Source: Hyphomonas sp. (GTDB lineage Bacteria > Pseudomonadota > Alphaproteobacteria > Caulobacterales > Hyphomonadaceae). From it: a stretch of DNA of 64,000 nt. Numbering within the stretch: position 1 is the first letter of the stretch; every line of letters starts with the position of its first letter. The translations under genes were made by a program, and so were the position numbers. The stretch spans positions 1-64,000 of the forward strand of contig NZ_PNMA01000003.1 in assembly GCF_013823385.1 (NCBI RefSeq), in the 5' to 3' direction. The notes under the pieces were generated by a model, which worked only from the letters and a program-made list of their open reading frames with translations, was not told where the DNA came from and ran no database searches. Of this stretch, positions 31,075 to 48,647 are shown in pieces.

Positions 31075-33183
31075 TTATTCTGAGAGAACCCGCAGCCTCA
31101 CGCCGATCGTGCGCGGCGTTGGGCCAGAACCGGAAAGAGGACCATTGGTGCCCAGGAATGTCGGGCCACGCTCGTCACCCAGGTTGTTTCCAATTACCGC
31201 AAATTCATACCGTTCAAACCGCAGACCCAGGGTCATGTTGACGACGTCATAGGGATTTGCGGTCAACCCGTTTGCCTGCAGGCGATCGCCCGAATGGCTG
31301 AACCCGATATTGCCAAAGCCGGTAATGTCGTTGCCCAGATCGCGGTTGTAGTTGATGTCGAACCGGTAGTTCTGGTCCAGCGTGTTCACGAGGCGCGAGC
31401 CAGGCCGGAACATCGGCAGGGCCGCCTGAACGACCGGATCGACGGTATCGTATTTGCTGTCATTGAAGTTACCCACAGCCCCAAGGCTCAGGCCCTCAAT
31501 CGGCGTATCCCAACGGATTTCAAGGTCCACACCCTTCGTGGTGGCGTCGCCGAAATTGGTGAAGCCGTTCACATCGGCAATCGCGCCGGGGGTGTTGGTC
31601 TGGAGGTTGGTGTACTCCAGCTGATACAGGTTCAGACCAAAATTGAGACCGAGCTCACGGCTGCGCCATTTGAGGCCGAATTCGTAGTTCTTGGACGATT
31701 CAGGGTCCAGAGCCACATCCGTTGGAATGCCTGCATCCACAAGGGATTGAACCTGCACGCGCGACTGCACGATACCGGGACGGAAGCCGGTTGCCGCCGA
31801 TACAAACATCGTCAGATCGTCGGTGGGAAGATAGGAAATATTGACCCGCCAGGTGGTCACTTCCTCTTCGGTCGGGATCGATGAGGTCGCGTCTTCAAAT
31901 GTGCGCGTGTCGTAATATTGGCGCAGGCCCACCAGAGGCACAACCTTGCCCCCGAACAGCTCATAGCTGACTTCACCGAATACGGCGAAGTTCTCAGTCA
32001 GCGTATTGTTGTCTGCATTGATCACGATCACTGGCAGGGTCAGCGTGTTGAACTGAGGGCCCTCACCATCCTGATAGGCTGCGCCAATGAGCCAGTGCAG
32101 GGGGCCGTCCCCGTTGGAGTTTGCCCGCACTTCCTGCGAGAACAGTTTCGGGCCGAACTGGCTGGAGAACGATCCGGCCGGAGAAAGCGGGATGTTGATC
32201 CCGAAATCGCCTTCCAGATGGCTGGTCGCGCTGGTGATGGAGAACTTGTCGAAATCCACCGTGCCTGTCAGGCTCATCAGGGTGAAGTCCCCGTTGCTGA
32301 AGCCTTTCTGCCCGGCGGTGTTCTGGAAGTAGGGCGGGTTCACGGATGCCGTGAAGCCGGTGAAGTCCTGCCTCGGCTGGAAGTTCCAGTACTGCGCGCG
32401 AAGGGTCACGTTGTCCGCAGGCTTGTACATGGCCACGATGCGATAATCGTCATTCTTCGCGCCGTTCACATCCTCTTCGTCCGGAGTGCCATCATAGGGG
32501 CCATAATAGGCGTCAGCCCAGCCCGGATTGCGCGAATGACCGCCGCTGACGCGGATGGCGAGCTTGTCCTTGATGATCGGCACGGAAAGCGCGCCGGCCA
32601 GACCGTAATTGTAGTCTTCTGCGCCTCTCGTCCGCGAGGTTTCTGCTTCGGCAGAATACTCAACCTTTTCGAGGTTGGGGTCGCGCGTGTGGAAAATGAA
32701 AACACCGCCGGAAGAGCCCTGACCATACAGCGTGCCCTGCGGGCCGCGCAGAACCTCCACGCGCTCCATGTCCAGGAAACGCACCGGAGGGGCGATGCCG
32801 AAATTCGGCACCACAAAAGGAACATCATCGAGATAGTACCCGATCGGCGAATCACCGTTGCTGCTCACGGCGCCGCGGAGATTGTAGATACGGGAACTGA
32901 CCGACTGGCGGAACCCTTCAAAGGCGCCAGGGACGGTCGATACAAGATCGTCGACCGTGGTGATGTTACGCACCTTCATCTCTTCCCCGGAGAACGCCTG
33001 AATGGCGAGGGGGACGGACTGGAGTTCCTGCGCCCCGGTTTTGGACGCCGTGACGGTGACTGTACCGAGCGCGTATTCTTTGTCTGTTGATGGGGACTCT
33101 TCCGATTGGGCGTTGGCAGTGCCGGCAGCCACGGAAAGAGCGAGAATCAGCGAGATCGCTGAAGCGTTGCGGAAACGATGCAT
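31075..33183 (-). CDS. TonB-dependent outer-membrane receptor
   Basis: A 702-residue protein: signal peptide cleaved at ANA-QSEE, TonB box-like region (ALGTVTVTASKTG), plug domain (SVPLAIQAFSGEEMKVRNITTVDDL, VEVLRGPQGTLYGQGSSGG) and a beta-barrel ending TPRTIGVRLRVLSE. No FecA-type signalling extension. It imports a bulky nutrient using TonB energy. A LacI-type palindrome (33217-33230) lies about 35 bp upstream, between TTGACG and a TGTATA/TATAGT -10 region, tying it to the sugar-ester regulon. RBS GGGAGGAAG before the ATG. Ligand inferred to be an acylated oligosaccharide. Confidence 0.93.
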   Translation of the reverse strand: MHRFRNASAISLILALSVAAGTANAQSEESPSTDKEYALGTVTVTASKTGAQELQSVPLAIQAFSGEEMKVRNITTVDDLVSTVPGAFEGFRQSVSSRIYNLRGAVSSNGDSPIGYYLDDVPFVVPNFGIAPPVRFLDMERVEVLRGPQGTLYGQGSSGGVFIFHTRDPNLEKVEYSAEAETSRTRGAEDYNYGLAGALSVPIIKDKLAIRVSGGHSRNPGWADAYYGPYDGTPDEEDVNGAKNDDYRIVAMYKPADNVTLRAQYWNFQPRQDFTGFTASVNPPYFQNTAGQKGFSNGDFTLMSLTGTVDFDKFSITSATSHLEGDFGINIPLSPAGSFSSQFGPKLFSQEVRANSNGDGPLHWLIGAAYQDGEGPQFNTLTLPVIVINADNNTLTENFAVFGEVSYELFGGKVVPLVGLRQYYDTRTFEDATSSIPTEEEVTTWRVNISYLPTDDLTMFVSAATGFRPGIVQSRVQVQSLVDAGIPTDVALDPESSKNYEFGLKWRSRELGLNFGLNLYQLEYTNLQTNTPGAIADVNGFTNFGDATTKGVDLEIRWDTPIEGLSLGAVGNFNDSKYDTVDPVVQAALPMFRPGSRLVNTLDQNYRFDINYNRDLGNDITGFGNIGFSHSGDRLQANGLTANPYDVVNMTLGLRFERYEFAVIGNNLGDERGPTFLGTNGPLSGSGPTPRTIGVRLRVLSE

Positions 33184-33216
33184 TACTTCCTCCCAGAAGT
33201 CATTTTTTCAGAACTA

Positions 33217-33230
33217 TACAAACGTTTGCA
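33217..33230. promoter_or_regulatory. LacI-type operator, site 1 (TonB receptor promoter)
   Basis: TACAAACGTTTGCA, core CAAACGTTTG. On the receptor strand it lies between a TTGACG -35 and the -10 region, ideal for repression. Confidence 0.8.
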
Positions 33231-33507
33231 TAGCGCGCTCGTCAAGCTATTCCAAGATGGCACAGCAAATAAACTGACCTGAGTGTGGCATTTGTATCTG
33301 TTGCCCCGTGACAGGGCTGTCTCTCATGTTTTCCGGCGCCCGCAGACCGCCGGTGCTAAGCCTCATCTGCGAATATTATGGCGCAGTGCAGCAATAGATA
33401 TGCTGCCGGGCGCAGGATCAGGGAACGGATCATCCCTCGCGAGAGCGCAAAACGGACTCAGGCACGGTCTCCGGCTTGCCTTGTGACGGCAACGCCCTTA
33501 CGCGTTT

Positions 33508-33521
33508 TGCAAACGGTTGTA
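33508..33521. promoter_or_regulatory. LacI-type operator, site 2 (ceramidase-like gene)
   Basis: TGCAAACGGTTGTA, 25 bp before the TTG start of the ceramidase-like gene and abutting a TAATAA -10 candidate (33520-33525). Confidence 0.75.
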
Positions 33522-33545
33522 ATAATTCCGATCTGGGAGGCTCAT

Positions 33546-34931
33546 TTGACCACAATATCTTCAAGCGTTTCTGCGCTGCGCGGGGCAGCCGTCGCAATAG
33601 CTTTCGCTGCGGGATGCGCGCCAATGCCGGCGGCCCTGGCGCAGGGGGCGGGATTGAAAGCCGGTGCTTCGAAGGTCGATATCACGCCCTCTGGCGACAA
33701 GCTGCCCAGGATATTCACAGGCATTCTGGATCCGATTCACGTGCGGGCGATCGTGCTGGAAAGCGGCGCGCAGCGAGCCGCGATGGTAACCGTGGATGCC
33801 GGGGCCATTCCGAACGAAATCTGGCAGCGGCTTACCACCAAGGCCGAAGCGGAATTGGGCATTCCGGCAGACCAGGTCATTCTGACGGCAACTCATACGC
33901 ACAGCGTGCCTTTCGGCTGGAGCGTCGGCTATGAGGAGCAGTTGTATCAGGCTGTGGAAGAAGCAGTGGCCGCGCTTCAACCTGCCAAAATGGCTTTTGG
34001 CACGGGCGTCTCCTACATCAATGTAAACAGAAACATCATCGATCCCCAAACAGGTCGCTGGTGGGAGGGGCCGAACTATCGGGGGCCCTCTGACAAGACT
34101 GTCGCTGTGCTGAGCTTTCAGACGCTCGAAGGCGCGCCCATCGGGATTTACTATAATTACGCCGTACACCCGGTAATCACCGGAAACCTTGATCTCATCA
34201 GCGGCGACATTCCCGGTGCAGCATCCGGCTATATTGAGGAGTCCCTTGGGGAAGAGGCTGTTGCGGTCTTTTCCTATGGCGCCGCAGGTGACCAGAACCC
34301 GATCTTTTTCCAGCAGACTTATGATCTCCGGGAAATCCGGATCGCCGATTTCGCCGCGCGTGGAGAGGATATCAGCAATGCGATGCCGCCCGGTGGGCAA
34401 GGGATGGACAGGTCAAATCCAAAAGTTGCGATGCTGATGGAGCAGCAGAAGCAGATGAACGCCACAATGGGACAGATGCTCGGCGAAGAAGTGCTCCATG
34501 TTCTGCGTTCCGGGCTGGCGCGGCCGGTCACGCAAGCTGCGATTTCCGGGGCTCAGATGACGGTCAGCTGCCCTGGACGCAATCGGCTCGACAAGGGGCG
34601 TGCCGGCTATCCGGGCGTCTATGAGGACGCTGATCCTGTGCCCATGAAGCTCAGCCTTCTGAGAATCGGCGATACCGTGATCGGAGGGATCGACGCTGAA
34701 ATCTTCACAATGATTGCTCAGAGGTTCAAAGCAGAGTCGCCCATCAGGAACTCAATCGTTGCGACTTTGACGAATGGCATGGCCCGCTCAGGGTACATTC
34801 CCAATGATGCGGCGTTTGCTCAAAATACGTTTGAGGTTGTTTCCTCCCGGCTGAAGCCGGGCTGTGCGGAAACGGCGATCGTCAATGGCTTTCTTGATCT
34901 GATCGAGGACACTGGCGCCTCATCCGACTGA
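33546..34931 (+). CDS. Exported neutral/alkaline ceramidase-like hydrolase
   Basis: A 461-residue protein starting at TTG with GGGAGG 5 bp upstream. Signal peptide (LRGAAVAIAFAAGCAPMPAALA), then a ceramidase N-terminal-type domain (PF04734): LKAGASKVDITPSG, VTVDAGAIPNEIW, LTATHTHSVPFG with metal-binding His, and YNYAVHPVIT. The C-terminal immunoglobulin-like domain of true ceramidases is absent. This family also occurs in bacterial carbohydrate loci, with unknown amide or ester substrates. Operator site 2 puts it in the LacI regulon, so I infer action on an acylated sugar rather than on ceramide. Confidence 0.8.
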   Translation: MTTISSSVSALRGAAVAIAFAAGCAPMPAALAQGAGLKAGASKVDITPSGDKLPRIFTGILDPIHVRAIVLESGAQRAAMVTVDAGAIPNEIWQRLTTKAEAELGIPADQVILTATHTHSVPFGWSVGYEEQLYQAVEEAVAALQPAKMAFGTGVSYINVNRNIIDPQTGRWWEGPNYRGPSDKTVAVLSFQTLEGAPIGIYYNYAVHPVITGNLDLISGDIPGAASGYIEESLGEEAVAVFSYGAAGDQNPIFFQQTYDLREIRIADFAARGEDISNAMPPGGQGMDRSNPKVAMLMEQQKQMNATMGQMLGEEVLHVLRSGLARPVTQAAISGAQMTVSCPGRNRLDKGRAGYPGVYEDADPVPMKLSLLRIGDTVIGGIDAEIFTMIAQRFKAESPIRNSIVATLTNGMARSGYIPNDAAFAQNTFEVVSSRLKPGCAETAIVNGFLDLIEDTGASSD

Positions 34932-34951
34932 ACTGCGTTGTGCTTTTCAGG

Positions 34952-34988
34952 ATGCCGTATGGGGCCAGGATCTGATCCTGTCCGGCAT
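34952..34988. terminator. Nested hairpin between convergent genes
   Basis: Outer stem ATGCCG / CGGCAT and inner stem CAGGAT-CTG-ATCCTG, just after the ceramidase-like gene and before the end of the leftward fructokinase gene. Only a short T run follows; probable bidirectional terminator. Confidence 0.4.
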
Positions 34989-35015
34989 TTCTGGGAGCTT
35001 TGCTGGCGTCTTGCT

Positions 35016-35912
35016 TCAGATCCCAAGTGCGGAATGAGCCAGCGCAACTGCGCCAAGAGGTCCGGCTTGGCTGCCAAGCCCTGCTGGCCGGATGATGGTG
35101 GCAAAATCCTCCGCTTGCGGAATAGGCAGATACCCCGCGAGGAGTTCCTGCGTGCGCTTCTGCACCATGGGAAGCAGGAAAGGCCGAGACGTACTGACAC
35201 CGCCACCAAACAATACCCGCTCTGCTGATGTTGTAAGCAGCAGCGTGGAAACCAGTTCAGCGATATCATTGGCAATGAGACTCCAGAGCGGATCTGCGTC
35301 GCCCACTTCGGCCATTGGCCGGCCAAAGCGCGCTGCCAGAGCCGGGCCAGAAATCAGCCCCTCAATGCAATCCCCATGGAAGGGGCAGACACCCGAGAAT
35401 GTGTCGTTTGCAGACCGGCGCGTGCGGATATGTCCGATTTCCGGATGCATGTAGCCATGCACCGGCTGCCCATTGATAACCAGACCTCCACCCACACCCG
35501 TGCCAATTGTGATGTAGCAGATGCTGGAGCAGCCTTGTCCCGCGCCCCAGCGATATTCGGCGAGCGCTGCGCCATTTACGTCGGTGTCGATAGCCCAGGG
35601 GCATTCAAAAGAATTGACAAGTTGTGCGGCGACATTGGCATTGGTCCAGTATGGTTTGGGCGTTTTCAGTATACTGCCGAAATTGTCCGATTGTTTCCGG
35701 AGTTGGACGGGGCCAAAGGATGCAATTCCGATCGCCGAGAAGGGCTTCTCGGCATACCAGGTGTTCAGTTGGTCACGCAGACGCGGCAGCGTTTCTTCCG
35801 GTGTGGTGGTAGGAACCGATACCTGATCCCGCACGGTGTTCCCGTCCGCCACAATCGCAATGGATTTTGTGCCACCAAGTTCCACGGCGGCAACACGTGT
35901 TTCTGCGACCAT
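35016..35912 (-). CDS. ROK-family fructokinase
   Basis: A 298-residue cytoplasmic sugar kinase. ELGGTKSIAIVADG is the ATP phosphate loop, GIASFGPVQL and TPKPYWTN match bacterial ROK fructokinases, DTDVNGAALAEYRWGAG carries the catalytic Asp, and HPEIGHIRTRR...GVCPFHGDCIEGLISGPA is the fructokinase version of the zinc motif. It should make fructose-6-phosphate. This points to a fructose-containing substrate for the surrounding LacI regulon. 131 bp downstream of the second hydrolase, same direction. Confidence 0.88.
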   Translation of the reverse strand: MVAETRVAAVELGGTKSIAIVADGNTVRDQVSVPTTTPEETLPRLRDQLNTWYAEKPFSAIGIASFGPVQLRKQSDNFGSILKTPKPYWTNANVAAQLVNSFECPWAIDTDVNGAALAEYRWGAGQGCSSICYITIGTGVGGGLVINGQPVHGYMHPEIGHIRTRRSANDTFSGVCPFHGDCIEGLISGPALAARFGRPMAEVGDADPLWSLIANDIAELVSTLLLTTSAERVLFGGGVSTSRPFLLPMVQKRTQELLAGYLPIPQAEDFATIIRPAGLGSQAGPLGAVALAHSALGI

Positions 35913-36043
35913 TCTGTGTCATCCCTTGCGAAGGAGAGGGTAAGGTGAGCGCTCGTTATGTAAGGCGCGGTGCGATGTCTGGGTTGGGGCCGTCAAGTCT
36001 ATGCATTAAACTTCGCGGAGCTCTGTCAAACTCGCATACGCGA

Positions 36044-37189
36044 CTATTTCCCCAGGTGCTCGTCAAAGAAATCGATCATCACCCTGTAAGCGTCCTGAGA
36101 TTCGGGAACATCCGGGTTGCTGTAAAACCCGTGAAACATGCCCTCCCATACATGCAGGTCTGCCTTTACGCCAAGCTTTACCAGCCTGCTGTGGGTGTAG
36201 ACTGCTGAGCTGAGCTCAAATCCCCGGGTGCCGGTGATGATCTGTGTCGGGGGGAATGCTGCCAGAACGTCATCGTGGTGAGCGGGGGCGACAAGCGGGT
36301 CGTACGGATCAACCTCCGAAAGGTAGGGCATCATGGAACGCTTCGGGGCGCCGGAGGTGTCAGGCGCCGGCCTAGGCGCCATGAAGCGTGCTTCGCCAAT
36401 GGCGGTGGCGGTGTAATTTGCGTCGCCGCCGAAGCCGTTCACCGGCGCGGCGGATCCGGCGCAATAGATGCCCGCTGCGCCGGGCATCGGCAAGCCGTGC
36501 TTCTGGAACCAGGCCAGAGACATGCCGGTCAGCATTCCGCCCGCCGAGCAGCCGAAGATGCCGATATTTTCTGCCGGATAGGTCTTCAGGAGTTCTGCGT
36601 AGACGGCGGCGACATCTTCGCTGGCAGCGGGAAACTTATATTCAGGCGCCTGACGATAGTTGACCGCAACGACCCGGTATCCTCCCAGCGCGGAGATGGG
36701 CATCGACTCCACTTCGGCGCAGGCGGGCCAGCAGGTTATGAATCCGCCGCCGTGCAGGTTTATCAGCACACGGTTCTGATTTTTCGGTTTGATGCCTTCT
36801 GAAGGGGTATAGTCATAAACCGGAACACCGCCGATTTCGGTTTCCACTTTCTGAACGGCAAAGAGCTCTCGTTGCCGATCGATGTAACTCTTCAGGAATG
36901 CCGGGCCCCCGATGCCTTCGACTTCCTTCAGCAGTTCGGGATTTTTCATCGTCAGCAGGTGGTCAACGAGATATGCCTTGCCTTCCGGGCTGAGATATTC
37001 GGACACCGGAACCGACATTGCAGGGACATGCACGACGCCGTCAGGATCGACGCTTACCTGAACGGTGGCTTCGGGGGGCTGCGGGAGAGATTGATGCGCG
37101 CATGCTGCGAGCAGGCTGGCGCAGGAAGCTATAAGGGGGAGTAGCAGGCGGCGCACGGGCATGTTGCGTTCCGGGAACAGGACTTTCAT
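36044..37189 (-). CDS. Exported HSL-type alpha/beta hydrolase (lipoprotein)
   Basis: A 381-residue esterase-like protein. The N-terminus (LLLPLIASCASLLAACAHQS) has a lipobox, so it is probably a lipoprotein in the periplasm or outer membrane. HGGGF in LINLHGGGFITCW is the oxyanion-hole motif of the hormone-sensitive-lipase family, GCSAGG the nucleophile elbow, and GMFHGF the catalytic His. ATG at 37187-37189 has GGAGGATC before it. It follows a related hydrolase by 46 bp. Predicted to remove acyl groups from the transported substrate. Confidence 0.88.
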   Translation of the reverse strand: MKVLFPERNMPVRRLLLPLIASCASLLAACAHQSLPQPPEATVQVSVDPDGVVHVPAMSVPVSEYLSPEGKAYLVDHLLTMKNPELLKEVEGIGGPAFLKSYIDRQRELFAVQKVETEIGGVPVYDYTPSEGIKPKNQNRVLINLHGGGFITCWPACAEVESMPISALGGYRVVAVNYRQAPEYKFPAASEDVAAVYAELLKTYPAENIGIFGCSAGGMLTGMSLAWFQKHGLPMPGAAGIYCAGSAAPVNGFGGDANYTATAIGEARFMAPRPAPDTSGAPKRSMMPYLSEVDPYDPLVAPAHHDDVLAAFPPTQIITGTRGFELSSAVYTHSRLVKLGVKADLHVWEGMFHGFYSNPDVPESQDAYRVMIDFFDEHLGK

Positions 37190-37235
37190 TTGATCCTCCG
37201 ATGTCATCCCTGAGCGGATGGAAAATTGTTTCAGA

Positions 37236-38330
37236 TTATATCTCTTGGGCCTGACCAAATGCCCGGCGCAAGGCATTCACCTTCGCGTTGGTAAAGCGTT
37301 TGGCGATCATGGTATCCGCAGCAATTCTGTCAAAGCCATGGAAGGCGCCGGGCACGACCACCAGTTCAACCGGCACGCCAGCCTCAATCAGCCTGCGCCC
37401 ATATTCGATGTTTTCACTGACAAAGAGATCAATTCCGCCGACGCCAATGAAGGCTGGCGGAAGCCCCGTCAGATTCTCAATGCGCGCGGGGACGCCCGTG
37501 ACAGGTACGCCGCTGCCGCCGGGTGGTTGTCCCAGAAAAGCCTCCCAACCGAAACGGTTGGATGCGGCATCCCAGCCGAAGGCGCCGATAAACGGGGGCG
37601 GCATCCGCGTGCTGCCCGTGCGATCATCCAGCATGGGGTAGACGAGCGTCTGGAAGGCCACGGGCACTTCTCCCCGGTCACGTGCAGTGATTGCCAACAG
37701 GGCCGAATGACCCCCGCCGGCGCTTTCGCCGAGAAGGGCGATGCGCGCGGGATCGGCGCCAAGGGGCTCAGCATTCTGGTAGAGCCACAGCAGCCCGGCA
37801 TAGTTGTCTTCAATTGAACCCTGATAGCGTGTTTCCGGCGCCAGCCTGTATTCGACGCTCACAATGACGCAATCGAGGTCGCGCGCCAGCGCTTGCAGAT
37901 GGCCGACCTCCCATTCGGCCTTTCCCAGTATGTACCCGCCACCATGCGAGTGCAGTATGGCAGGGCGGGAGGCCCCAGGCTTTGCGTTGATAACGAAGAG
38001 TTTCACATCGGGTGCATCGCCAGGCAGGCGCGCAAATTCCTCCAAGACGGCAATGTCAGGCAGGCGGGGAGGCGCAAATGCCGCTCCAAAATTGCGAGCG
38101 GACTTAAGGCTTTCGGCCGAATAGCTGGGAGGTGGTCCATTCTCCAGCATGCGCGCAGCGATTGCGCGCAATTCCGGGTCCACATGGCTGAGCGGATCCC
38201 GCGCCAGTGGCGGGGTGGGACCGGCAGGCTGCGGCTCGATGGCCGCACACGAAGGCGCCCCCATAGTTAGGACGCCCGCCATGCCGAGGCCGGCAATGCC
38301 GAATTGTCTTCTCGTGAGGTGCGCCGCCAT
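37236..38330 (-). CDS. Tat-exported HSL-type alpha/beta hydrolase
   Basis: A 364-residue esterase-like protein with a twin-arginine signal (LTRRQFGIAGLGMAGV). SHGGGYILG is the oxyanion motif, GESAGGG the nucleophile elbow and GAFHGFD the catalytic His segment. Start at 38328-38330 chosen: AGGAGGAAAC precedes it; a longer frame upstream has no ribosome site. Divergent from the LacI gene, with operator site 3 about 140 bp upstream. First gene of the hydrolase-hydrolase-fructokinase unit. Confidence 0.88.
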   Translation of the reverse strand: MAAHLTRRQFGIAGLGMAGVLTMGAPSCAAIEPQPAGPTPPLARDPLSHVDPELRAIAARMLENGPPPSYSAESLKSARNFGAAFAPPRLPDIAVLEEFARLPGDAPDVKLFVINAKPGASRPAILHSHGGGYILGKAEWEVGHLQALARDLDCVIVSVEYRLAPETRYQGSIEDNYAGLLWLYQNAEPLGADPARIALLGESAGGGHSALLAITARDRGEVPVAFQTLVYPMLDDRTGSTRMPPPFIGAFGWDAASNRFGWEAFLGQPPGGSGVPVTGVPARIENLTGLPPAFIGVGGIDLFVSENIEYGRRLIEAGVPVELVVVPGAFHGFDRIAADTMIAKRFTNAKVNALRRAFGQAQEI

Positions 38331-38736
38331 GTTTCCTCCTTGCCAGCCGTTTATCGGCATTTGATATTTTGTCTCTGTCTTGCTGCCCATCCGGGTGATT
38401 GCCTCGTCAAGATGGATCGAGGCTCCCATTCGAGGGCTTCTGAAAAACTACAATCAGAATCCAGTTTGTGCAAACGTTTGTATTTGGAGCGCAAGACGGC
38501 ATCAATCAGTGATTTCGGCAAAACCGAGGGTGCTCCTGACAGTATCTGCCCTTGGCCAGTGGGGGGATCGCGTCTAAATTCAGGCGTGAACTGAGCGGGA
38601 TGTCCGATGCTGAAGGCGGGAGTTTGGGTTTAACGCTACTGGCATAAGCCCTTGTGCATCCTTTCGGGTGTAAGGTGGGCTGACGCCATCGCTGATGGCA
38701 GGTTCATTGCATGTCTTGGTTTTTCAGGGATCCGAA
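38331..38736. other. Divergent regulatory region with LacI operator
   Basis: About 400 bp between the Tat-exported hydrolase and the LacI gene, holding operator site 3 at 38469-38482. No gene is supported here; a direct autoregulation of the repressor is possible but its promoter is unclear. Confidence 0.5.
38469..38482. promoter_or_regulatory. LacI-type operator, site 3
   Basis: TGCAAACGTTTGTA, perfect CAAACGTTTG core, between the divergent hydrolase and lacI-type genes. Confidence 0.8.
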
Positions 38737-39741
38737 ATGAATAAAAAGATCACCATGATAGAGCTGGCGAAGATTGCGCGCGTCGATATTTCGACCGTTT
38801 CGCGCGCTTTGAGCGACAGCCCCGTGGTCAAGGAAAGTACTCGCAAGAGAATCCAGCGGATTGCCAGCGAGGTCGGATATGCTGTGAACGCGCCTGCAAG
38901 CAGCCTGCGGCGAAAGTCGGCCCGCGCTCTGGGAATGGTTATCCCGTTGAACCCGGAAACGGATCAGACGATGTCCGACCCGTTCTTTCTGGAGATGGTC
39001 GGCGGTGTCTCACAAGCTGCTGCGGAGCTTGATTACGACCTGGTGGTGAGCGTTCCGCGCGAAGCGAGCCATGCTGCTGAGCAGCGTCTTCTCAACACGG
39101 GCCGGGCAGATGGGATTATCGTTATCGGCCAGGCGGCGAGGGCTGCTCATCTGAACGAGCTTGCCGCGCGAAACGCGAACATCGTTGTCTGGGGTGCCCG
39201 AATGAAGGGGGCCAAATATACTACAGTCGGCAGCGATAACGCCAAAGGCGGGTATATCGCAGCGACCCATCTTTTCAGCCGTGGCGCACGGAACATCCTT
39301 TTCCTCGGCGATCCGGGGCTGCCTGAAGTGAAGCTCCGGTATGAGGGATTCAAGAAGGCGCACAAGGAGGCGGGGGTTACTCATGACCCGTCTTATCTGC
39401 TGCGCATGAACTTCGGCGGACGCACGACATATGATCAGGTTCTGGAGTTCTTGCGTGCCGGAAACCGGATAGACGGCATCTTTGCCAGCTCGGACATTCT
39501 CGCAAATTCCGCCATGCACGCACTGGTCGCCGAGGGGCTCAGCATTCCGGAAGATGTGAAGGTGGTGGGCTATGACAATATCGGGCAATCATCCATGATG
39601 ACACCGCCCCTTACGACTGTTTCTCAGAGCATTGCCGAAGGCGGGCGTTTGTTGGTGGAGCTTCTTTTGGCAAAGCTGGAAGGCGGAACCGCCAACTCCT
39701 GCTTCACCAAAACGGAATTGATCATACGCCATTCCACCTGA
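38737..39741 (+). CDS. LacI-family transcriptional regulator
   Basis: A 334-residue repressor. Residues 3-60 form the LacI helix-turn-helix (TMIELAKIARVDISTVSRAL) and hinge (VNAPASSLRR); the rest is a periplasmic-binding-protein-like effector domain (GMVIPLN, GIIVIGQA, YKGGYIAATHL-type segment, GIFASSDILANSAMHAL, VVGYDNIGQSSMMTPPLTTV). The recognition helix DISTVSRAL is of the usual type for CAAACG-like half sites, which match the five palindromes nearby. It most likely represses them until the imported sugar binds. Confidence 0.93.
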   Translation: MNKKITMIELAKIARVDISTVSRALSDSPVVKESTRKRIQRIASEVGYAVNAPASSLRRKSARALGMVIPLNPETDQTMSDPFFLEMVGGVSQAAAELDYDLVVSVPREASHAAEQRLLNTGRADGIIVIGQAARAAHLNELAARNANIVVWGARMKGAKYTTVGSDNAKGGYIAATHLFSRGARNILFLGDPGLPEVKLRYEGFKKAHKEAGVTHDPSYLLRMNFGGRTTYDQVLEFLRAGNRIDGIFASSDILANSAMHALVAEGLSIPEDVKVVGYDNIGQSSMMTPPLTTVSQSIAEGGRLLVELLLAKLEGGTANSCFTKTELIIRHST

Positions 39742-39750
39742 TTTCACTGA

Positions 39751-40875
39751 TCAGTGTGAAGTTTGTTGTGTTGCTTCCCTGGCCGCTGGGCGGGCAGCGC
39801 CGATCTTGAGGGAGACGGGAGGCGCAAAGGTCAGTTGGCTGCCCGGAGATGCATATTCAGTATAGGGTGCAAGCAGAGTCACGCTGTCGCTGGAGCATGC
39901 GCTTTGCAGGAAACTCGCGCCAAAGAGATGCTCTGTTCCCGGGATTATCGAGTCATCACGTTCAAACGCGCTGACCCAGGGCCCTCTCATCGAGCTGGAC
40001 TTGTAGAGGCGTAAAACCTTTGTCACGTCTTCTGCAGGCTGGCTCTCATTGATCCGATCACATGCAGAAATCAGCATGAACCAGGTCGAACTCTTCTGAT
40101 CGTAGTGAAGCTTGGGCACTTCGGCCTGTGTGAAAGCTTCTGTATCGGGCAGGAGAATTGGAGGGTGAAGCCCCTCAATCTGAAAGCTGCCGCCTTTCTG
40201 TCTCACCGTTGCGTGAGCCACAGCGCCCTGCGCCGGCGCCGCTTTTGCAGACCAGAACACCTCCAGGGTCTCAGCGTCACCAGCGACAATGAACGGATCA
40301 CGCCAGGCAAGGATCGGCCCGCCCTCTTCGCCGTCCTTGTGGCCCAGCATATCCTTCGCAGGCAGATAATATCCTGCTGACCGGATACGATCGTAGTCGC
40401 GCACAGGGCAGGACAGGGCTGTTTCTGGCAGGGTGTCGAGCCGGATTCCGCTGCGGGAGTGACCAAGGCAGATCGTTTGCAGGAATGGCTTGTCTGTGCC
40501 CGCTTCCCGCAATCCGGTGAAACCGCACACCCAATCGTCCTCCGAGCGCGCGAGCATTCCGCCGCTCCAGACATTGCGTGCGAAGGCGCCATCTCCGATG
40601 GTATGGGGGGATAGATAGGCGCCATGGTCTTGCCAGATGCGGCCTGCATCCCTGGAAGAGAAATGCCGTATATGGAAGGCATAGTCGTTGCGTTCTTCGG
40701 CAAGCACTGGGTTGCCTGCGGCGTCCTTGCGGCTCAGGGCGAGGCAATAGAGATGAGTGGTGCCTCCGGTTTCCGCTGTCCATGAGTCCCACAGCCAGAG
40801 GTCTGGATGCGAAATGCCATTTTCAAAGAGAAGGGAGGACGGCGGTGGAACCGGAACCGGCTTTTGAAGAGTCAT
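39751..40875 (-). CDS. GH68/GH32-like five-bladed fructoside hydrolase (cytoplasmic)
   Basis: A 374-residue protein of glycoside hydrolase clan J. LWLWDSWTAE contains the probable nucleophile Asp30 (GH68 pattern WDxW), NVWSGGML matches the WSG segment, WRDPFIV holds Asp193 of the RDP motif, and AEVPKLHY the probable acid/base Glu252. It is shorter than secreted levansucrases and has no signal peptide, so it likely hydrolyses sucrose or a fructo-oligosaccharide inside the cell. 8 bp downstream of the permease gene; the fructokinase of the same regulon would use its product. Confidence 0.75.
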   Translation of the reverse strand: MTLQKPVPVPPPSSLLFENGISHPDLWLWDSWTAETGGTTHLYCLALSRKDAAGNPVLAEERNDYAFHIRHFSSRDAGRIWQDHGAYLSPHTIGDGAFARNVWSGGMLARSEDDWVCGFTGLREAGTDKPFLQTICLGHSRSGIRLDTLPETALSCPVRDYDRIRSAGYYLPAKDMLGHKDGEEGGPILAWRDPFIVAGDAETLEVFWSAKAAPAQGAVAHATVRQKGGSFQIEGLHPPILLPDTEAFTQAEVPKLHYDQKSSTWFMLISACDRINESQPAEDVTKVLRLYKSSSMRGPWVSAFERDDSIIPGTEHLFGASFLQSACSSDSVTLLAPYTEYASPGSQLTFAPPVSLKIGAARPAAREATQQTSH

Positions 40876-40883
40876 TGTGATAC

Positions 40884-42143
40884 TCAGTAGTCGCTGGAAT
40901 CAGCATTGGCCAATGCGCCGCCAGCTGGATCGGCGATCAGATTGTAAAGTGCCAAGGCAAAGAGAAGCCCCGCGAAGACGGTGGCCAGGTGGAAGCCAAC
41001 TGCCATGTCGCCATTTCCGGCGACATCACTCACATATCCCATGAGCAGGGGGGCAAAGGCTGCAGAGACGGCGGTGAAGAAAAGGATGAGGCCGGCGGCC
41101 GCTCCGTGCTTGGCTTTGGGCAGGCAGCTGATACCTTTCGAGTTGAAGGTGGGGTAGATCATTGACATGAAAAGCCCGGACAGGGGCAGCAAGAAAACAG
41201 CGACGTCTCTTCCAAACAGTGTACTGAGCAGGAAGCAGACGAAGATAGCCCCGGTGAAGGCAGCCATGACAATCTTCCAGTCAAAAACCTGAAGAATCCA
41301 GAGCGCCAGGAAACGGCCCACAGCCCGCAAGATAAAGAAGATCATCACGGCATACGCCGCCACCGCCATCGCGAGGGGTGTGCCCGTGTAGCCCGAGAAC
41401 AATGTTGGTGCCCAGACAAAGATTGCGACTTCGCATGCAACATACAGTGCGATAGCCAGAGAGAACCCCATGGCATGCCGGTTGCCCATCAATCGAACCG
41501 CGCTCAGCATGTCCGCTTTGGAGGCTTCCAACTTGCGCGCAGGCACCGGAAAACGGGTTCTCAAGGATGCGAGGATCATAACCCCGCACATGGCGGCTGC
41601 CAGTAGGTAGAGCCAACGCCAGGACAGCCCGGCCGAATCAAGCGTGACAACGATCAGTGGGCCAACAATAGCGCCAATGGCGAAAAAACCTTCGCACGCA
41701 TTCATGCGGCGGGTGTGGTCGCTTGTGGAGGCGGATATGTCACCGATGAGTGCGAGGATGGCGGTTTTGAAAACCCCGATCGCCAGGCCTCCTGCAAACA
41801 GAAGTGCCAGATAGAAAGAAAATGTGCTGGAGCCGAAAAACACGGCAGAGGAAATCCCATAAACGGCAAGTCCCAGCACAATTGCATTCTTTCTCCCGAG
41901 GGAGTCTGCGAGGAACCCTAGCAGAATGCCACTGAGCGCGATGCCCACCATCGTCGCCCAGTGGAACAGGCTCGCCTCGGTGTTCGACAGGCTTAGCTCA
42001 ATCTTGGCTATGCTGATGATCTCGCCGACTGCATCGGTTGTCATCGCGAACATGAAAAACATGGCGTATGTCAAACCAGTGACCAATCCATAGCGGCTTG
42101 CAGGCCGATCGATGGCTGCTGCGGAGCTGTTGGGTGCAGTCAT
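40884..42143 (-). CDS. MFS permease of the LacI regulon
   Basis: A 419-residue, 12-helix major facilitator. GFLADSLGRKNAIVLG is the loop 2-3 signature (GxxxDxxGRK), and the second half opens after RTRFPVPARKLEASKADM. ATG at 42141-42143 with GAGGA 7 bp upstream; a longer frame would run through the operator. Operator site 5 is 37 bp upstream. Cotranscribed with the GH68-like hydrolase, so it probably brings the deacylated sugar into the cytoplasm. Confidence 0.88.
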   Translation of the reverse strand: MTAPNSSAAAIDRPASRYGLVTGLTYAMFFMFAMTTDAVGEIISIAKIELSLSNTEASLFHWATMVGIALSGILLGFLADSLGRKNAIVLGLAVYGISSAVFFGSSTFSFYLALLFAGGLAIGVFKTAILALIGDISASTSDHTRRMNACEGFFAIGAIVGPLIVVTLDSAGLSWRWLYLLAAAMCGVMILASLRTRFPVPARKLEASKADMLSAVRLMGNRHAMGFSLAIALYVACEVAIFVWAPTLFSGYTGTPLAMAVAAYAVMIFFILRAVGRFLALWILQVFDWKIVMAAFTGAIFVCFLLSTLFGRDVAVFLLPLSGLFMSMIYPTFNSKGISCLPKAKHGAAAGLILFFTAVSAAFAPLLMGYVSDVAGNGDMAVGFHLATVFAGLLFALALYNLIADPAGGALANADSSDY

Positions 42144-42179
42144 TCTTGGATCCTCGCCTTCACTTGATGGTAGATGCGG

Positions 42180-42193
42180 TACAAACGATTGCA
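42180..42193. promoter_or_regulatory. LacI-type operator, site 5 (permease promoter)
   Basis: TACAAACGATTGCA, one mismatch in the palindrome core, 37 bp upstream of the permease ATG. Confidence 0.7.
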
Positions 42194-42290
42194 AATATTT
42201 TCCGGACTTGGCCGTCCATATTCTGCAGCCGTCGTGTTCAAAATTACGTGTTTTTGTGTCCGGCGTGTGGAGGGGGGGCGCAGCCCAGCC

Positions 42291-43586
42291 CTAGCGAAAG
42301 AGATCAAGGTCTATGGCGTCTGCCATGGCTTTGTAGCCAGTATCGGAGGGATGAATGCGGTCTCCGGCGTCGTAGGCTTTCAAAAGATAGGCCGGGTTCT
42401 CTGGATCTCGCACGGCAGCGTCGAAATCGATCACGGCATCAAAGGCCCCGCTATTGCGGATCCATTCATTGATCTCATTGCGGATCACATCCTTTTCCTC
42501 TGTCGCGTAACCGGGAAAGGGCGATCCAAGATCTGGCGTCAGGGTCGCTCCAATTACCCGGATTCCCTTGGCGTGGGCTCGCTGGATGATCTGCGTATAG
42601 GCCGCGATAATGTCTTGAGCGCCTACGGCAGGGAAGGGCTCGCTCATTCCCGGCAGGGTAAGGCCGCTCAGCCCGAGATCATTGATGCCCTCAAGAAGGA
42701 TCAGGTCGGTGACGCCTGGCATCGCCAGAGCATCGCGGTCCAGCCTGGCAAGGGCGCTCTGGCCGACGCTGTCTTGCAGCAGGCGGTTGCCGCCGATGCC
42801 GTGATTGACAATGGCGACGTGGTTCATGCCCTCGGCTCGCAGTCGCTCAGCCAGATAGTCCGGCCAGCCGCGCATCAGCGGATCCCGGCTGCCGGTTCCA
42901 TCGGTGATGGAGTCGCCGAAAGCGACAATCACGCGGCTTACCTCAGGATTGTCCACATGGATGGCCGTCACCAGCGGCCGGGCCACCAGACTTTTGCTGC
43001 CTGTCAGTTCTGCAGCGGCTGTCTGGTCGCCGCCGGGCGCGACCGCCACGATCAGCTGCGGGTCTGCCTGGGGAACCTGAACCGGTTCACGAAGGTACAA
43101 ACTGACGGCAACAATGCCGCCATCCGGAATGGAAAGCGCTACCGGATCGCTCCAGAGAGGCGCGCCAGCGGCGAGGGAAAGGCCATCGGCCGCACCAGAG
43201 AATGTCAGTTTCTGGGGGCTCTCAATGTCGATCTTGCCTTCCTTTACAAGGGCAATGGTCGCGGCGCCGACGGACACTTGGGGAACGCTTGCCCCCCCAT
43301 CGAGGACGATGCGGACCCGCTCACCCCCGGCGCTCACCCGCATCTGGTAACGAACCGTTCCCTCAAGAACCACCGGAACCATTCCCGGAGGGGCAGAGCC
43401 GGCCGCGAGAGGAAGGGAGGGGCTGCTGGCCCAGCTAGCCACCCAGTTTTGACCCGCCGGTGTGTCGTCACTGGGGGCTGGCGTTATCGGTGCCGTCTGG
43501 CATGCGGCCAGCAAAAGCGCCGCGCCCGCCAAAAGACCTTTGAACCAATAAGCAGCACTGCCGGGGCGTACGATAAGGGCGGACAT
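42291..43586 (-). CDS. SGNH/GDSL esterase (lipoprotein) with N-terminal beta domain
   Basis: A 431-residue protein. Signal with lipobox in LLAGAALLLAACQTAP. About 150 residues of beta-rich domain (WVASWASSPS, TVRYQMRVSAGGERVRIVL) precede the SGNH domain: FGDSITDGTGS (block I, Ser nucleophile), HGIGGNRLL (block II), EGINDLG (block III) and HPSDTGY (block V, catalytic His). This layout is common in carbohydrate esterases. ATG at 43584-43586 has GGAG 6 bp upstream. Follows the second SGNH gene by 61 bp. Confidence 0.9.
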   Translation of the reverse strand: MSALIVRPGSAAYWFKGLLAGAALLLAACQTAPITPAPSDDTPAGQNWVASWASSPSLPLAAGSAPPGMVPVVLEGTVRYQMRVSAGGERVRIVLDGGASVPQVSVGAATIALVKEGKIDIESPQKLTFSGAADGLSLAAGAPLWSDPVALSIPDGGIVAVSLYLREPVQVPQADPQLIVAVAPGGDQTAAAELTGSKSLVARPLVTAIHVDNPEVSRVIVAFGDSITDGTGSRDPLMRGWPDYLAERLRAEGMNHVAIVNHGIGGNRLLQDSVGQSALARLDRDALAMPGVTDLILLEGINDLGLSGLTLPGMSEPFPAVGAQDIIAAYTQIIQRAHAKGIRVIGATLTPDLGSPFPGYATEEKDVIRNEINEWIRNSGAFDAVIDFDAAVRDPENPAYLLKAYDAGDRIHPSDTGYKAMADAIDLDLFR

Positions 43587-43647
43587 TTGCTTCTCCAATA
43601 TGAGACGTGAACGGATGGTCAGGCCTGCTACCAACGGGGCGGCGGGG

Positions 43648-44571
43648 TTACTTCTGCGCTTTGGCAATTGCCTGCCGGGCGGCTTCCTGCATGCGGGCAT
43701 ATCCCTCGCGATGCGGGTGAACTCCGTCATGGGTCAGGTTTTCAGACATTTTTGCGCCATCGTCCGTCAGCAGGCTGTGGTAATCCACAAAAACCGCATC
43801 TTGTTGCGCGGCGTACTCTTTAATCCATTGATTCAGAACTGAAATTCTTTCGGGAGGATTGAGTTCGGGGCGCCAACCGAAGGATCCTGCGGGCGGTATG
43901 CTCGCTAGGATCACACCAATTCCGTGGCTTTGCGCCAGGGTGACCATTGCCTCGATATTGCCCTTGAAGGCTTCGTCGCTCACATATCCGGTGTTTTCCG
44001 CCAGGTCATTGGTGCCGGCCATGATGTGGACAACTTCCGGATTCAGCCGGACGACATCCTGCCAGAACCGGACCAGCATCTGGGATGAAGTCTGACCGCT
44101 GATACCGCGGTTGATTACGCCTGGCTCGAACAGTTCCGGATCGCCAATGCTCCAGAATTCGGTAATCGAGTCTCCGAGAAAAACGACCTTTGGTTTAGGT
44201 CCGGCCATGACAGTCAGATTATCATTTTTGTACTGACAGAGATTCCCCCAGTCATTCTTCCGGCGGTCCATATCAAGAGATTGCACCTCCTTCATTTCCG
44301 GTTCGCCGAGATAATGAAGGTGGCTGAAGTCGCTTACGGGATCGAGCATGTCGAGGATGAGATCATCCAGGAATGTGCGGGCCTCCGGGCTCAGCTGCAC
44401 ACATACCTGCGGGTCTTGAGGTGGGGGTGGCGCGCTCTCGCATACCCCTGCCAGCCCCGTAAGTGCGGCAAGCGAGGCAAGGAGGGCAAGACCCCGTCCA
44501 ACGACCGCTGATGGTCGCTGGCCTACATCCGGGTTGAGTATTGCCGAGGGGGGCTTGTCTGCATCAACCAA
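43648..44571 (-). CDS. Exported SGNH/GDSL esterase
   Basis: A 307-residue protein with a long polar N-terminus before a hydrophobic export signal (GLALLASLAALTGLAGVC). Blocks: FLGDSITEFW (Ser nucleophile), RGISGQTSSQML, MAGTNDLAE and HDGVHPHREGY (catalytic Asp/His). Typical carbohydrate acetyl- or acylesterase of the platelet-activating-factor acetylhydrolase-like type. Operator site 4 lies 107 bp upstream. First gene of the SGNH pair. Confidence 0.9.
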   Translation of the reverse strand: MVDADKPPSAILNPDVGQRPSAVVGRGLALLASLAALTGLAGVCESAPPPPQDPQVCVQLSPEARTFLDDLILDMLDPVSDFSHLHYLGEPEMKEVQSLDMDRRKNDWGNLCQYKNDNLTVMAGPKPKVVFLGDSITEFWSIGDPELFEPGVINRGISGQTSSQMLVRFWQDVVRLNPEVVHIMAGTNDLAENTGYVSDEAFKGNIEAMVTLAQSHGIGVILASIPPAGSFGWRPELNPPERISVLNQWIKEYAAQQDAVFVDYHSLLTDDGAKMSENLTHDGVHPHREGYARMQEAARQAIAKAQK

Positions 44572-44677
44572 TTCTATTCCTCCCGGATGTGCTGCTTTGC
44601 GCAGCTTATCTGCTTAGGGCGTTCAGAACATGAGCACGCCGGACAAAGGCGACCAAAATTGCCTGAACGCAACTTTA

Positions 44678-44691
44678 CGCAAACGTTTGTA
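44678..44691. promoter_or_regulatory. LacI-type operator, site 4 (SGNH esterase promoter)
   Basis: CGCAAACGTTTGTA with a perfect CAAACGTTTG core, upstream of the leftward esterase pair. Confidence 0.75.
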
Positions 44692-44799: not shown

Positions 44800-45387
44800 T
44801 CAGGGAACCAAAGACCAACGGCCCAGGAATTCGTATCTCGAATGTCCGACATGGCTGTGCACAAGCGCGATTTCCGTAACCGGTATCGCAATGGGCTCGA
44901 TGGGCTGCGGCGGGATAATCGTCTTGTCCCATACGAGCGTAATATGTGGACTTATCCTTTGACCCGCGCGTGGCGGCTCTCCCGAAAGGACAGAAAAAGT
45001 TTCACCCATGTGTTTGGCAAGGCGAGTGATATGGGGTGACGGGCGCTGCGCACATACGACGAAAGGTTTCTTGGCTCTTCTGTTCTGATAACTCATGACC
45101 ATGTCGAGCTTGAGTTCGAATTGCTCGAAACGGAAGGCCCCGCCTATGATCTTTGACAAGTGGGTCACCCGGGGTGGAAGGCGCCTTCCTCTGAAAACAG
45201 GGTGCAGGGATATGTGCAAGCGGTCAGGCGGGATGGGCGCGCTGCGGAGTTTATAACGGTCCCGGAAATGGGCGCATTTCTCGGCCAGGAACGGAATTGC
45301 GCAGGGAGGGGCCATGAGGGCGAAGAAGAGGTTGTGTTCCTGCGCCTCTTCATCTGGTTGGGGGTAAGGGTCAGAGGAGCGTGGCAT
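44800..45387 (-). CDS. 2'-5' RNA ligase / 2H phosphoesterase family protein
   Basis: A 195-residue LigT-like protein. Its two catalytic motifs are HISLHP (about residue 58) and HITLVW (about 148), the HxS/T pair of 2H phosphoesterases, with the LFFALMAPP first strand. Such enzymes act on 2'-5' RNA or cyclic phosphates; the physiological role here is unknown. Its start overlaps the dnaE2 stop by one base, so it may be read with the SOS operon. Confidence 0.85.
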   Translation of the reverse strand: MPRSSDPYPQPDEEAQEHNLFFALMAPPCAIPFLAEKCAHFRDRYKLRSAPIPPDRLHISLHPVFRGRRLPPRVTHLSKIIGGAFRFEQFELKLDMVMSYQNRRAKKPFVVCAQRPSPHITRLAKHMGETFSVLSGEPPRAGQRISPHITLVWDKTIIPPQPIEPIAIPVTEIALVHSHVGHSRYEFLGRWSLVP

Positions 45388-48300: not shown

Positions 48301-48647
48301 CTGGCCTTCAGGATGTCCGTAACCGTAATTTGGCAATCGCCTTTAGGCGCCCGGAATTTACCTTCCGACAGCAGGCGAGAAAGCCGGCCATAAGCCGCTC
48401 TGTCCATTGGATAGGCAAGAATTTCCGGGCCATCTTCCGGCACAAGGCGCGCGCCCACCACCAGCCGCAAGCCCGCTTCCTTTGCCGCTACATGGGCTCG
48501 CACAACCCCGGCCAGGGTATTCCTGTCGGCCACGCCAATTGCAGCAAGCTTCAGCTCTGCTGCGCGCGCGATCAATTCATGCGCGTGGCTGGCGCCCCGC
48601 AGAAAGGAGAAATTCGTTGTCACGGCCAGTTCGGCATAATCGCTCAT
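45387..48647 (-). CDS. dnaE2: Error-prone DNA polymerase III alpha subunit (ImuC)
   Basis: A 1086-residue C-family polymerase. It starts with a PHP domain (YAELAVTTNFSFLRGASHAHEL, degenerate metal site), has the palm motif PDIDVDFEHERREEVIQY with catalytic Asp residues, the thumb/finger segment FLSPERKEPPDIDVDF, and an OB domain near the end (IVLVRQRPGTASGVVFVTLEDE). It lacks the C-terminal beta-clamp motif region of DnaE1-length enzymes. It performs translesion synthesis with ImuA and ImuB after SOS induction. ATGA overlap with imuB. Confidence 0.96.
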   Translation of the reverse strand: MSDYAELAVTTNFSFLRGASHAHELIARAAELKLAAIGVADRNTLAGVVRAHVAAKEAGLRLVVGARLVPEDGPEILAYPMDRAAYGRLSRLLSEGKFRAPKGDCQITVTDILKASEGMILIVTPPDIPSTDFLITLETIAREAPGRTYLAARHAYAGRNHERLSRLAEIANRAGAPLIATNDVLYHVPERRPLQDVLTCIREHHTIETAGFLLEANGERHLKSAGEMARLFKGFEQAVARSVEVLERCRFSLDELSYEYPDEPVSPGSTPQAHLERLAWEGAKMRYPEGVPEKVADQIRSELKIIAQLSYAPYFLTVNDIVRWARDQGILCQGRGSAANSAVCYCLGITSVDPTMTKLLFERFLSPERKEPPDIDVDFEHERREEVIQYVYERYGRHRAALTATVISYRSRSAIREVCRALGLSDDISSALANGVWGSWSDTLPDKRIAEAGLDPGNPLIRRAVQLARQLLGFPRHLSQHVGGFVLTRGPLIETVPIGNAAMKDRTFIEWNKDDIDALGIMKVDVLALGMLTCIRKAFDLLEAHKGITHSLASIEQGDEATYDMLCKGDSIGVFQVESRAQMAMLPRLKPRTYYDLVIEVAIVRPGPIQGNMVHPYLRRRKGIETITYPSPAPDQGPADELQSILSRTLGVPLFQEQAMQIAIDAARFTPDEANGLRRAMATFRNVGTIHQYEEKLVSKLIERGYDPVFAKSCFEQIKGFGEYGFPESHAASFALLVYVSSWIKCHHPDVFCAALLNSQPMGFYAPAQIVRDAQEHGVEIRPVDVNYSDWDNTLEPLQDCEGIFAVRLGFRQVDGLSQADMEHLMMCRGAGYATPEELMRRACLPRSVAERLAAADAFGSMGLSRRAALWKVRGEPSQHILPLFTAAHLAEQGTEASVELPQMPPSEHVIQDYQTTRLSLKNHPMHFLRPLHERRGILSTKAVTALPSGRRVQTSGIVLVRQRPGTASGVVFVTLEDETGIANLVVWPRVMERFRAVVMRSRIIHVKGRVQTADNVTHIVAEQLIDCTGELNLLSEDTLRDPLKGVLARPDEVARPIAERKGPPKRTAGVHPRDVRVIPRSRDFH

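What the first reader, a model, noticed from the sequence alone, without database searches (positions are those of the whole stretch)
31075..44691. Predicted LacI regulon for an acylated fructose-containing sugar
Seen: TonB receptor, ceramidase-like hydrolase, two HSL-type hydrolases, two SGNH esterases (all with export signals), MFS permease, cytoplasmic GH68/GH32-like hydrolase, ROK fructokinase and one LacI regulator, with matching palindromes before five of the units. Known: GH-J enzymes split fructosides; the ROK CPFHGDC motif marks fructokinases. Inferred: the OM receptor takes up an acyl-sugar (for example an acylated sucrose or fructan), exported esterases strip it, the permease imports it, and it ends as fructose-6-phosphate. 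I know no described system with this gene set.
Basis: partly seen in the sequence, partly recalled or inferred. Interest (0 to 1): 0.75.

Follow-up and report, generated by a model that had tools for sequence, protein, structure and literature searches.

The report
Acylated-sucrose uptake regulon in Hyphomonas
A marine bacterium carries one co-regulated gene set that seems built to take in a sucrose-like sugar masked by acid groups, strip the groups off, import the bare sugar and split it with an unnamed enzyme family; the genes look well linked, but the substrate is still a prediction.

Summary
In detail: ten genes lie where stated, and five matching LacI-type palindromes stand before five units. 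At up to one mismatch the palindrome has seven places in the 4.18-Mb genome, five of them here. The cytoplasmic hydrolase (GHx) belongs to a family that gives the window copy no Pfam or NCBIfam hit, yet has a GH32/GH68 (clan GH-J) propeller fold and conserved catalytic motifs. Of 62 fetched GHx loci, 53 show no such esterase set; most of them look like plain sucrose-type cassettes (LacI 45, permease 48, kinase 43, another TonB receptor 40). Nine loci, like the window, join GHx to exported-type esterases and/or a ceramidase-like hydrolase, with a different TonB receptor in 8 of 9. On the GHx tree this trait changes at least three times. Eight of the nine loci have the operators (Hyphomonas, Pseudokordiimonas, one more alphaproteobacterium); a gammaproteobacterial one has none. 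Likeliest sugar: sucrose. The acyl group is unknown; acetyl or short-chain is my guess, and an aromatic-acid hint was not upheld. New variant of a known kind (sux-type loci); no activity is shown.

The parts
31075..33183 (-). TonB-dependent outer-membrane receptor (type 'TBDT-a', the type found with esterases)
   Evidence: PF00593/PF07715; type a in 8 of 9 esterase-type loci and 2 of 53 other GHx loci
33217..33230 (.). LacI-type operator TACAAACGTTTGCA before the TBDT
   Evidence: perfect match; conserved in L026-L028
33508..33521 (.). operator TGCAAACGGTTGTA before the ceramidase-like gene
   Evidence: one mismatch; perfect or one-mismatch copies at the orthologue in L026-L028, L037, L041
33546..34931 (+). 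ceramidase-like (PF04734) hydrolase with signal-like N-terminus; start corrected from 33378
   Evidence: PF04734 E 5e-17; TTG 33546 with upstream GGGAGG; His motifs H117/H119 and H208 invariant, residue facing the ceramidase Ser is Asn251 in 9 of 9
35016..35912 (-). ROK-family kinase, fructokinase-like (CPFHGDC)
   Evidence: PF00480; best NCBIfam FrctkaseScrK E 1e-58, 199 bits against a cut-off of 400
36044..37276 (-). HSL1: hormone-sensitive-lipase-type esterase, putative lipoprotein (likely start 37162)
   Evidence: GCSAG_HSLs E 9e-103, below cut-off; HGGGF and GCSAGG, lipobox LAAC
37236..38429 (-). HSL2: hormone-sensitive-lipase-type esterase with Tat-like RRQF motif (likely start 38330)
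   Evidence: PF07859 E 2e-51; LipP1-like, below cut-off; HGGGY and GESAGG, TRRQF
38469..38482 (.). operator TGCAAACGTTTGTA before HSL2-HSL1(-ROK), divergent from lacI
   Evidence: perfect match
38695..39741 (+). LacI-family regulator (likely start 38737)
   Evidence: PF00356/PF13377; a LacI of this cluster lies in the locus of 45 of 53 non-esterase GHx loci
39751..40875 (-). GHx: GH-J-type hydrolase without signal (five-bladed propeller; W29-D30-S-W32, W103-S104, R192-D193-P194, E252)
   Evidence: no Pfam/NCBIfam hit alone; profile hits levansucrases E 4e-7; AF2 pLDDT 92.4; fold = GH68/GH32
40884..42194 (-). MFS permease (likely start 42143)
   Evidence: PF07690
42180..42193 (.). operator TACAAACGATTGCA before MFS-GHx
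   Evidence: perfect match
42291..43730 (-). SGNH1: CBM-like + SGNH esterase, putative lipoprotein (likely start 43586)
   Evidence: PF13472; PDB 9kr0 (SGNH/GDSL hydrolase, no function named) E 1e-65, then 7tog/7toj (FjoAcXE-like acetylxylan esterases) E 2e-58 and 5e-53
43648..44571 (-). SGNH2: GDSL/SGNH esterase with signal-like N-terminus
   Evidence: PF13472 E 2e-29; GDSIT, GTNDL, DGVHP
44678..44691 (.). operator CGCAAACGTTTGTA before SGNH2-SGNH1
   Evidence: one mismatch; same place in L026-L028

Best explanation
A single LacI-controlled catabolic regulon for an O-acylated fructose-containing small sugar, most likely acylated sucrose. Steps: (1) the TonB receptor takes the acylated sugar across the outer membrane; (2) envelope esterases (HSL1, HSL2, SGNH1, SGNH2) and the ceramidase-like hydrolase remove its acyl groups; (3) the MFS permease imports the bare sugar; (4) GHx, a cytoplasmic clan-GH-J-type hydrolase, splits the fructosyl bond; (5) the ROK kinase makes fructose-6-phosphate; (6) the sugar or a product releases LacI from five operators. 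Shown by sequence: gene set, operators, conservation, predicted fold and motifs. Inferred: substrate, every catalytic and transport step, inducer, export of each enzyme.
Confidence: 0.6

Rival explanations
1. Plain sucrose (or short fructo-oligosaccharide) regulon in which the esterases serve another task, e.g. stripping acetyl groups from unrelated plant or algal oligosaccharides that occur together with sucrose; the shared LacI only uses sucrose as a cue.
For: 53 of 62 GHx loci have none of these esterase clusters; SGNH1 relatives de-acetylate glucuronoxylan.
Against: A different TonB receptor comes with the esterases; no xylanase or other glycosidase besides GHx is among the ten genes; the esterase trait changes at least three times on the GHx tree, losses allowed.
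Confidence: 0.2
2. The acyl groups are phenolic acids (phenylpropanoid sucrose esters), and de-acylation also feeds aromatic catabolism.
For: L042 is flanked by protocatechuate 4,5-cleavage genes (LigK and LigB-type models above cut-off) and L036 by a VanA-type oxygenase, an MFS nearest the aromatic-acid model (below cut-off) and a MarR regulator.
Against: No operator at >=12 of 14 positions lies before those genes; LigK at E<=1e-40 is absent from all 7 esterase-type genomes of the genus and present in only 3 of 61 relatives; the neighbour in L037 is instead a sodium/solute symporter (VC_2705 family above cut-off; monocarboxylate and acetate models only below).
Confidence: 0.1
3. The sugar is not a fructoside: GHx acts on a pentofuranoside or another sugar through its GH43-like propeller.
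Against: Credible profile hits in the PDB are GH68 only; WDSW, WSG and RDP motifs align with levansucrase or inulosucrase; fructokinase-like kinase and sucrose-symporter-like permease in loci.
Confidence: 0.1

Closest known systems
sux sucrose CUT locus of Xanthomonas campestris (SuxA TBDR, SuxB amylosucrase, SuxC transporter, SuxR LacI), PMC1790865 (passages seen)
   Same: LacI-repressed set of TonB receptor, inner-membrane sugar transporter and cytoplasmic sucrose-splitting enzyme
   Different: GHx of a GH-J-type fold plus a fructokinase-like ROK replace amylosucrase; four exported-type esterases and a ceramidase-like hydrolase are added; five operators
LacI-family sucrose regulons (ScrR, CscR, SuxR), PMC4052901 (passages seen)
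   Same: Permease, hydrolase or phosphorylase, fructokinase and outer-membrane component under one LacI regulator
   Different: In the passages shown no exported esterases; the words TonB and Hyphomonas do not occur in the main text held
GH68 levansucrases/inulosucrases and GH32 fructosidases (clan GH-J)
   Same: Five-bladed propeller; WDSW, WSG and RDP motifs, conserved Glu
   Different: No Pfam/NCBIfam hit for the window protein; 374 aa, no signal; E252-V-P254 looks closer to the GH32 E-C-P motif (recalled) than to the E-I-E-R of GH68
FjoAcXE-like acetylxylan esterases (7TOG-7TOK), PMC9105624 (passages seen)
   Same: CBM-like + SGNH architecture of SGNH1, E 2e-58 to 7tog
   Different: No xylan-degrading enzyme among the ten genes
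Neutral ceramidase (4WGK, 2ZWS)
   Same: PF04734 N-terminal homology and His motifs
   Different: The Ser is replaced by Asn; shorter protein

Membership tests
Clan GH-J (GH32/GH68) | five-bladed beta-propeller fold | tested here: met
Clan GH-J (GH32/GH68) | catalytic Asp (WDSW), RDP and acidic Glu conserved | tested here: met
   D30, R192-D193-P194 and E252 invariant in 52 of 52 rows; WDSW, WSG and RDP aligned with levansucrase or inulosucrase. The register of the Glu is not resolved: E252 faces the first Glu of the levansucrase E-I-E motif
GH68 proper | match to the Pfam GH68 model | tested here: not met
   window protein none at E<=10; 20 of 52 relatives at E<=0.1, best 9e-7
GH32 proper | match to the Pfam GH32N model | tested here: not met
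   window protein none at E<=10; 28 of 52 relatives at E<=0.1, best 5e-8
Clan GH-J (GH32/GH68) | activity on beta-fructofuranosides | not testable with these tools
   needs enzyme assay
Fructokinase ScrK (NF045550) | score above curated cut-off (400 bits) | tested here: not met
   199 bits, best of all models; two core-locus kinases 239 bits each
Neutral ceramidase | catalytic Ser of the P. aeruginosa enzyme (identity recalled) | tested here: not met
   aligned residue is Asn251, invariant in 9 of 9
LacI regulon | palindromic operators before the target units, enriched over the genome and conserved | tested here: met
sux-type CUT locus | TBDT + inner-membrane transporter + sugar enzyme + regulator in one locus | tested here: met
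sux-type CUT locus | induction by sucrose | not testable with these tools
   needs expression data

The most novel reading that the evidence does not exclude
A dedicated bacterial utilisation system for acylated sucrose (or another acylated fructoside): one LacI regulon that couples TonB-driven uptake of the masked sugar, an envelope set of esterases (four in the window, two to six in related loci), and intracellular cleavage by an unnamed GH-J-type family. The esterase module has been joined to, or lost from, a widespread sucrose-type cassette at least three times, in alphaproteobacteria and possibly a gammaproteobacterium.
Probability: 0.5. Interest if true: 0.7.

Novelty: new variant of a known kind. 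Interest (0 to 1): 0.55.

Why it matters
It would show that marine bacteria eat acylated sucrose or a similar masked fructoside. Three paper searches aimed at this (12 of 563 papers shown, 12 of 60, 10 of 39) showed no title describing a bacterial uptake system for it. It also points at a GH-J-type enzyme family, in 62 loci from Alpha- and Gammaproteobacteria and Bacteroidota, whose window member no Pfam model recognises, with a substrate hypothesis that one enzyme assay can test.

Tried and rejected
Single-sequence searches with GHx found nothing in Pfam, NCBIfam or PDB; only profiles worked. The looser operator word in the window alone was not significant. Phenolic acyl groups: suggested by flanks of L036 and L042, rejected as the main reading because operators do not reach those genes and LigK is missing from the esterase-type genomes of the genus. 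A true ceramidase was rejected on the Ser-to-Asn change. The AF2 model of the ceramidase-like protein was poor (pLDDT 68.9), so no fold search was made with it. Paper searches for acylsucrose or sucrose-ester use by bacteria showed nothing that fits (titles and starts of abstracts of the papers listed, not all matches). A fructan polymer was thought less likely because no exported glycosidase is among the ten genes.

How counts were made. In 'WIN' counts as one locus. The longest-ORF rule missed genes, e.g. the ROK of L037 and L041, which searches show in the same contigs (L019, L021), so kinase counts are lower bounds; several contigs are short, so absences there are weak. 'Esterase-type' means at least two of the HSL1, HSL2, SGNH1, SGNH2 and ceramidase-like clusters, or the last alone; other esterases were not looked for. 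L079 and L089 dropped out of the 64 fetched loci because no GHx ORF clustered there, leaving 62 (two of them fragments, L084 and L086). The scan uses two short peptide patterns and is not exhaustive. One HSL2-like ORF in L027 (1013-2002) lies outside the cassette. A4 holds the window plus 51 of the 62 GHx ORFs (near-duplicates, fragments and some others left out); the tree adds L041. L026, L027, L028, L037, L040 and L041 are the same contigs as those of G034, G012, G016, G005, G028 and G002 by length.
Full report
What is there. The region 31075-44691 holds ten genes: a TonB-dependent receptor, a PF04734 (neutral ceramidase-like) hydrolase, an ROK kinase, two alpha/beta hydrolases of the hormone-sensitive-lipase kind (HSL1, HSL2), a LacI regulator, a protein without family (GHx), an MFS permease and two GDSL/SGNH hydrolases (SGNH1, SGNH2). 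The four esterases keep their catalytic motifs, and in the window their N-termini carry lipobox-like or Tat-like motifs; in the orthologues these patterns are patchy (lipobox in 4 of 8 HSL1, 3 of 7 SGNH1, 0 of 7 SGNH2; lipobox or Tat in 7 of 8 HSL2-like ORFs), so export is inferred. GHx starts with no signal. The ceramidase-like gene probably starts at TTG 33546, which puts the 33508 palindrome just upstream of it. The window's genome shares its genus with that of Hyphomonas polymorpha.

Operators. The consensus TRCAAWCGWTTGYA has 7 places in the 4.18-Mb genome at up to one mismatch; 5 of these are the five palindromes before the five units, and all three perfect places are here; the backward control pattern gives 3. 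The shorter CAAACGWTTGYA has four exact places in the genome, all here. In nine related esterase-type loci plus the window there are 41 sites at 13 or more of 14 positions; 60 permuted half-sites gave a mean of 1.5 (the three highest 15, 26 and 26, which I did not inspect). In the 54 other loci scanned, 37 have at least one site, 92 in all, against a mean of 5 for 20 permutations, highest 38. In L026-L028 all five sites lie at the same places as in the window; L037, L040 and L041 have 13-of-14 sites by the receptor, GHx, SGNH2 or the ceramidase-like gene; L042 has sites before BD-FAE/HSL2, ROK/GHx, HSL1 and the receptor; L036 before ROK/MFS-GHx and the receptor; L083 has none.

The sugar core. 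A pattern scan of the genome-contig collection gave 64 loci, 62 with a clustered GHx ORF, from Hyphomonadaceae, Robiginitomaculaceae, Parvularculaceae, Kordiimonadaceae, Porticoccaceae, Cellvibrionaceae and Flavobacteriaceae among others. In 53 of 62 none of the esterase clusters is seen; of these 45 have LacI, 48 a permease, 43 a kinase and 40 a second kind of TonB receptor, TBDT-b. Kinases are ROK (best model fructokinase ScrK, below cut-off) or PfkB (ribokinase on top in one tested, fructokinase in the other, below cut-off); one permease kind, three tested, hits only the sucrose/proton symporter model at E<=1e-20, far below cut-off. This is the layout of the sux sucrose locus (PMC1790865, passages) with GHx plus a kinase instead of amylosucrase. 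I infer that the core handles sucrose.

The esterase add-on. Nine loci and the window carry it: Hyphomonas polymorpha, H. beringensis and a MAG with the same ten-gene layout; H. chukchiensis, H. oceanitis and a MAG with a second layout that also has a BD-FAE-type hydrolase and, in two of the three, a carboxylesterase; Pseudokordiimonas caeni (ceramidase-like, BD-FAE-type and carboxylesterase only), alphaproteobacterial MAG NORP106 (HSL1, HSL2, BD-FAE-type, ceramidase-like) and a gammaproteobacterial MAG (HSL1, SGNH1, SGNH2, ceramidase-like). TBDT-b is in 0 of 9 and TBDT-a in 8 of 9, against 40 and 2 of 53 (Fisher p 2e-5 and 1e-7, not corrected for kinship). Among 61 whole genomes (own included) GHx is in 13, once each. 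At E<=1e-40 the ceramidase-like gene is in 7, all within those 13 (hypergeometric p 4e-6, same caveat). HSL1 is in the same 7 plus one 39% match, SGNH1 in the same 7 plus three 39-42% matches. Six of these seven genomes are also six of the nine loci, so the two tallies are not independent. On a 53-row GHx tree the esterase label changes 5 times, at least 3 forced by well-supported branches; one gain with two losses cannot be excluded.

Reading. A module that brings a different outer-membrane receptor and adds esterases to a sucrose-type core, under the same operator, fits uptake of an acylated form of the core sugar. SGNH1 is a relative of acetylxylan esterases of known structure (E 2e-58; the top PDB hit, 9kr0, names no function), and HSL-type enzymes favour short acyl chains (recalled), so acetyl or short-chain acyl groups are my first guess. 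The ceramidase-like protein keeps the histidine motifs but has Asn where the ceramidase has its Ser; its chemistry is open. A tempting lead, aromatic-acid genes beside L036 and L042, was not upheld.

Literature. Eight paper searches, three of them on acylsucrose or sucrose esters, showed no bacterial acylsucrose utilisation system among the papers listed; I saw listings and abstract starts, and passages of PMC5507952, PMC4052901, PMC1790865 and PMC9105624.

Verdict. Observation confirmed; interpretation right in outline, refined to an acylated-sucrose variant of a sucrose-type regulon; substrate and inducer untested.

Noticed in passing
   Followed up: partly
L042:1-6065 and L036:1-5726: Esterase-type loci bordered by protocatechuate 4,5-cleavage genes (L042) and by a VanA-type oxygenase with an aromatic-acid-type MFS (L036).
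   Followed up: partly
L044, L053, L088: A gene that looks by eye like trehalose-phosphate synthase (OtsA) stands beside the ROK kinase or MFS permease in Hyphomonas core loci.
   Followed up: no
window 44800-50350: Just beyond the locus lie ORFs that look like a 2'-5' RNA ligase, an error-prone DnaE2 polymerase and an ImuB-type protein (recognised by eye, not searched).
   Followed up: no
L049, L050, L058, L059, L064 (Flavobacteriaceae): GHx genes without a LacI, permease or kinase of the core clusters nearby; their contexts were not examined further.
   Followed up: no
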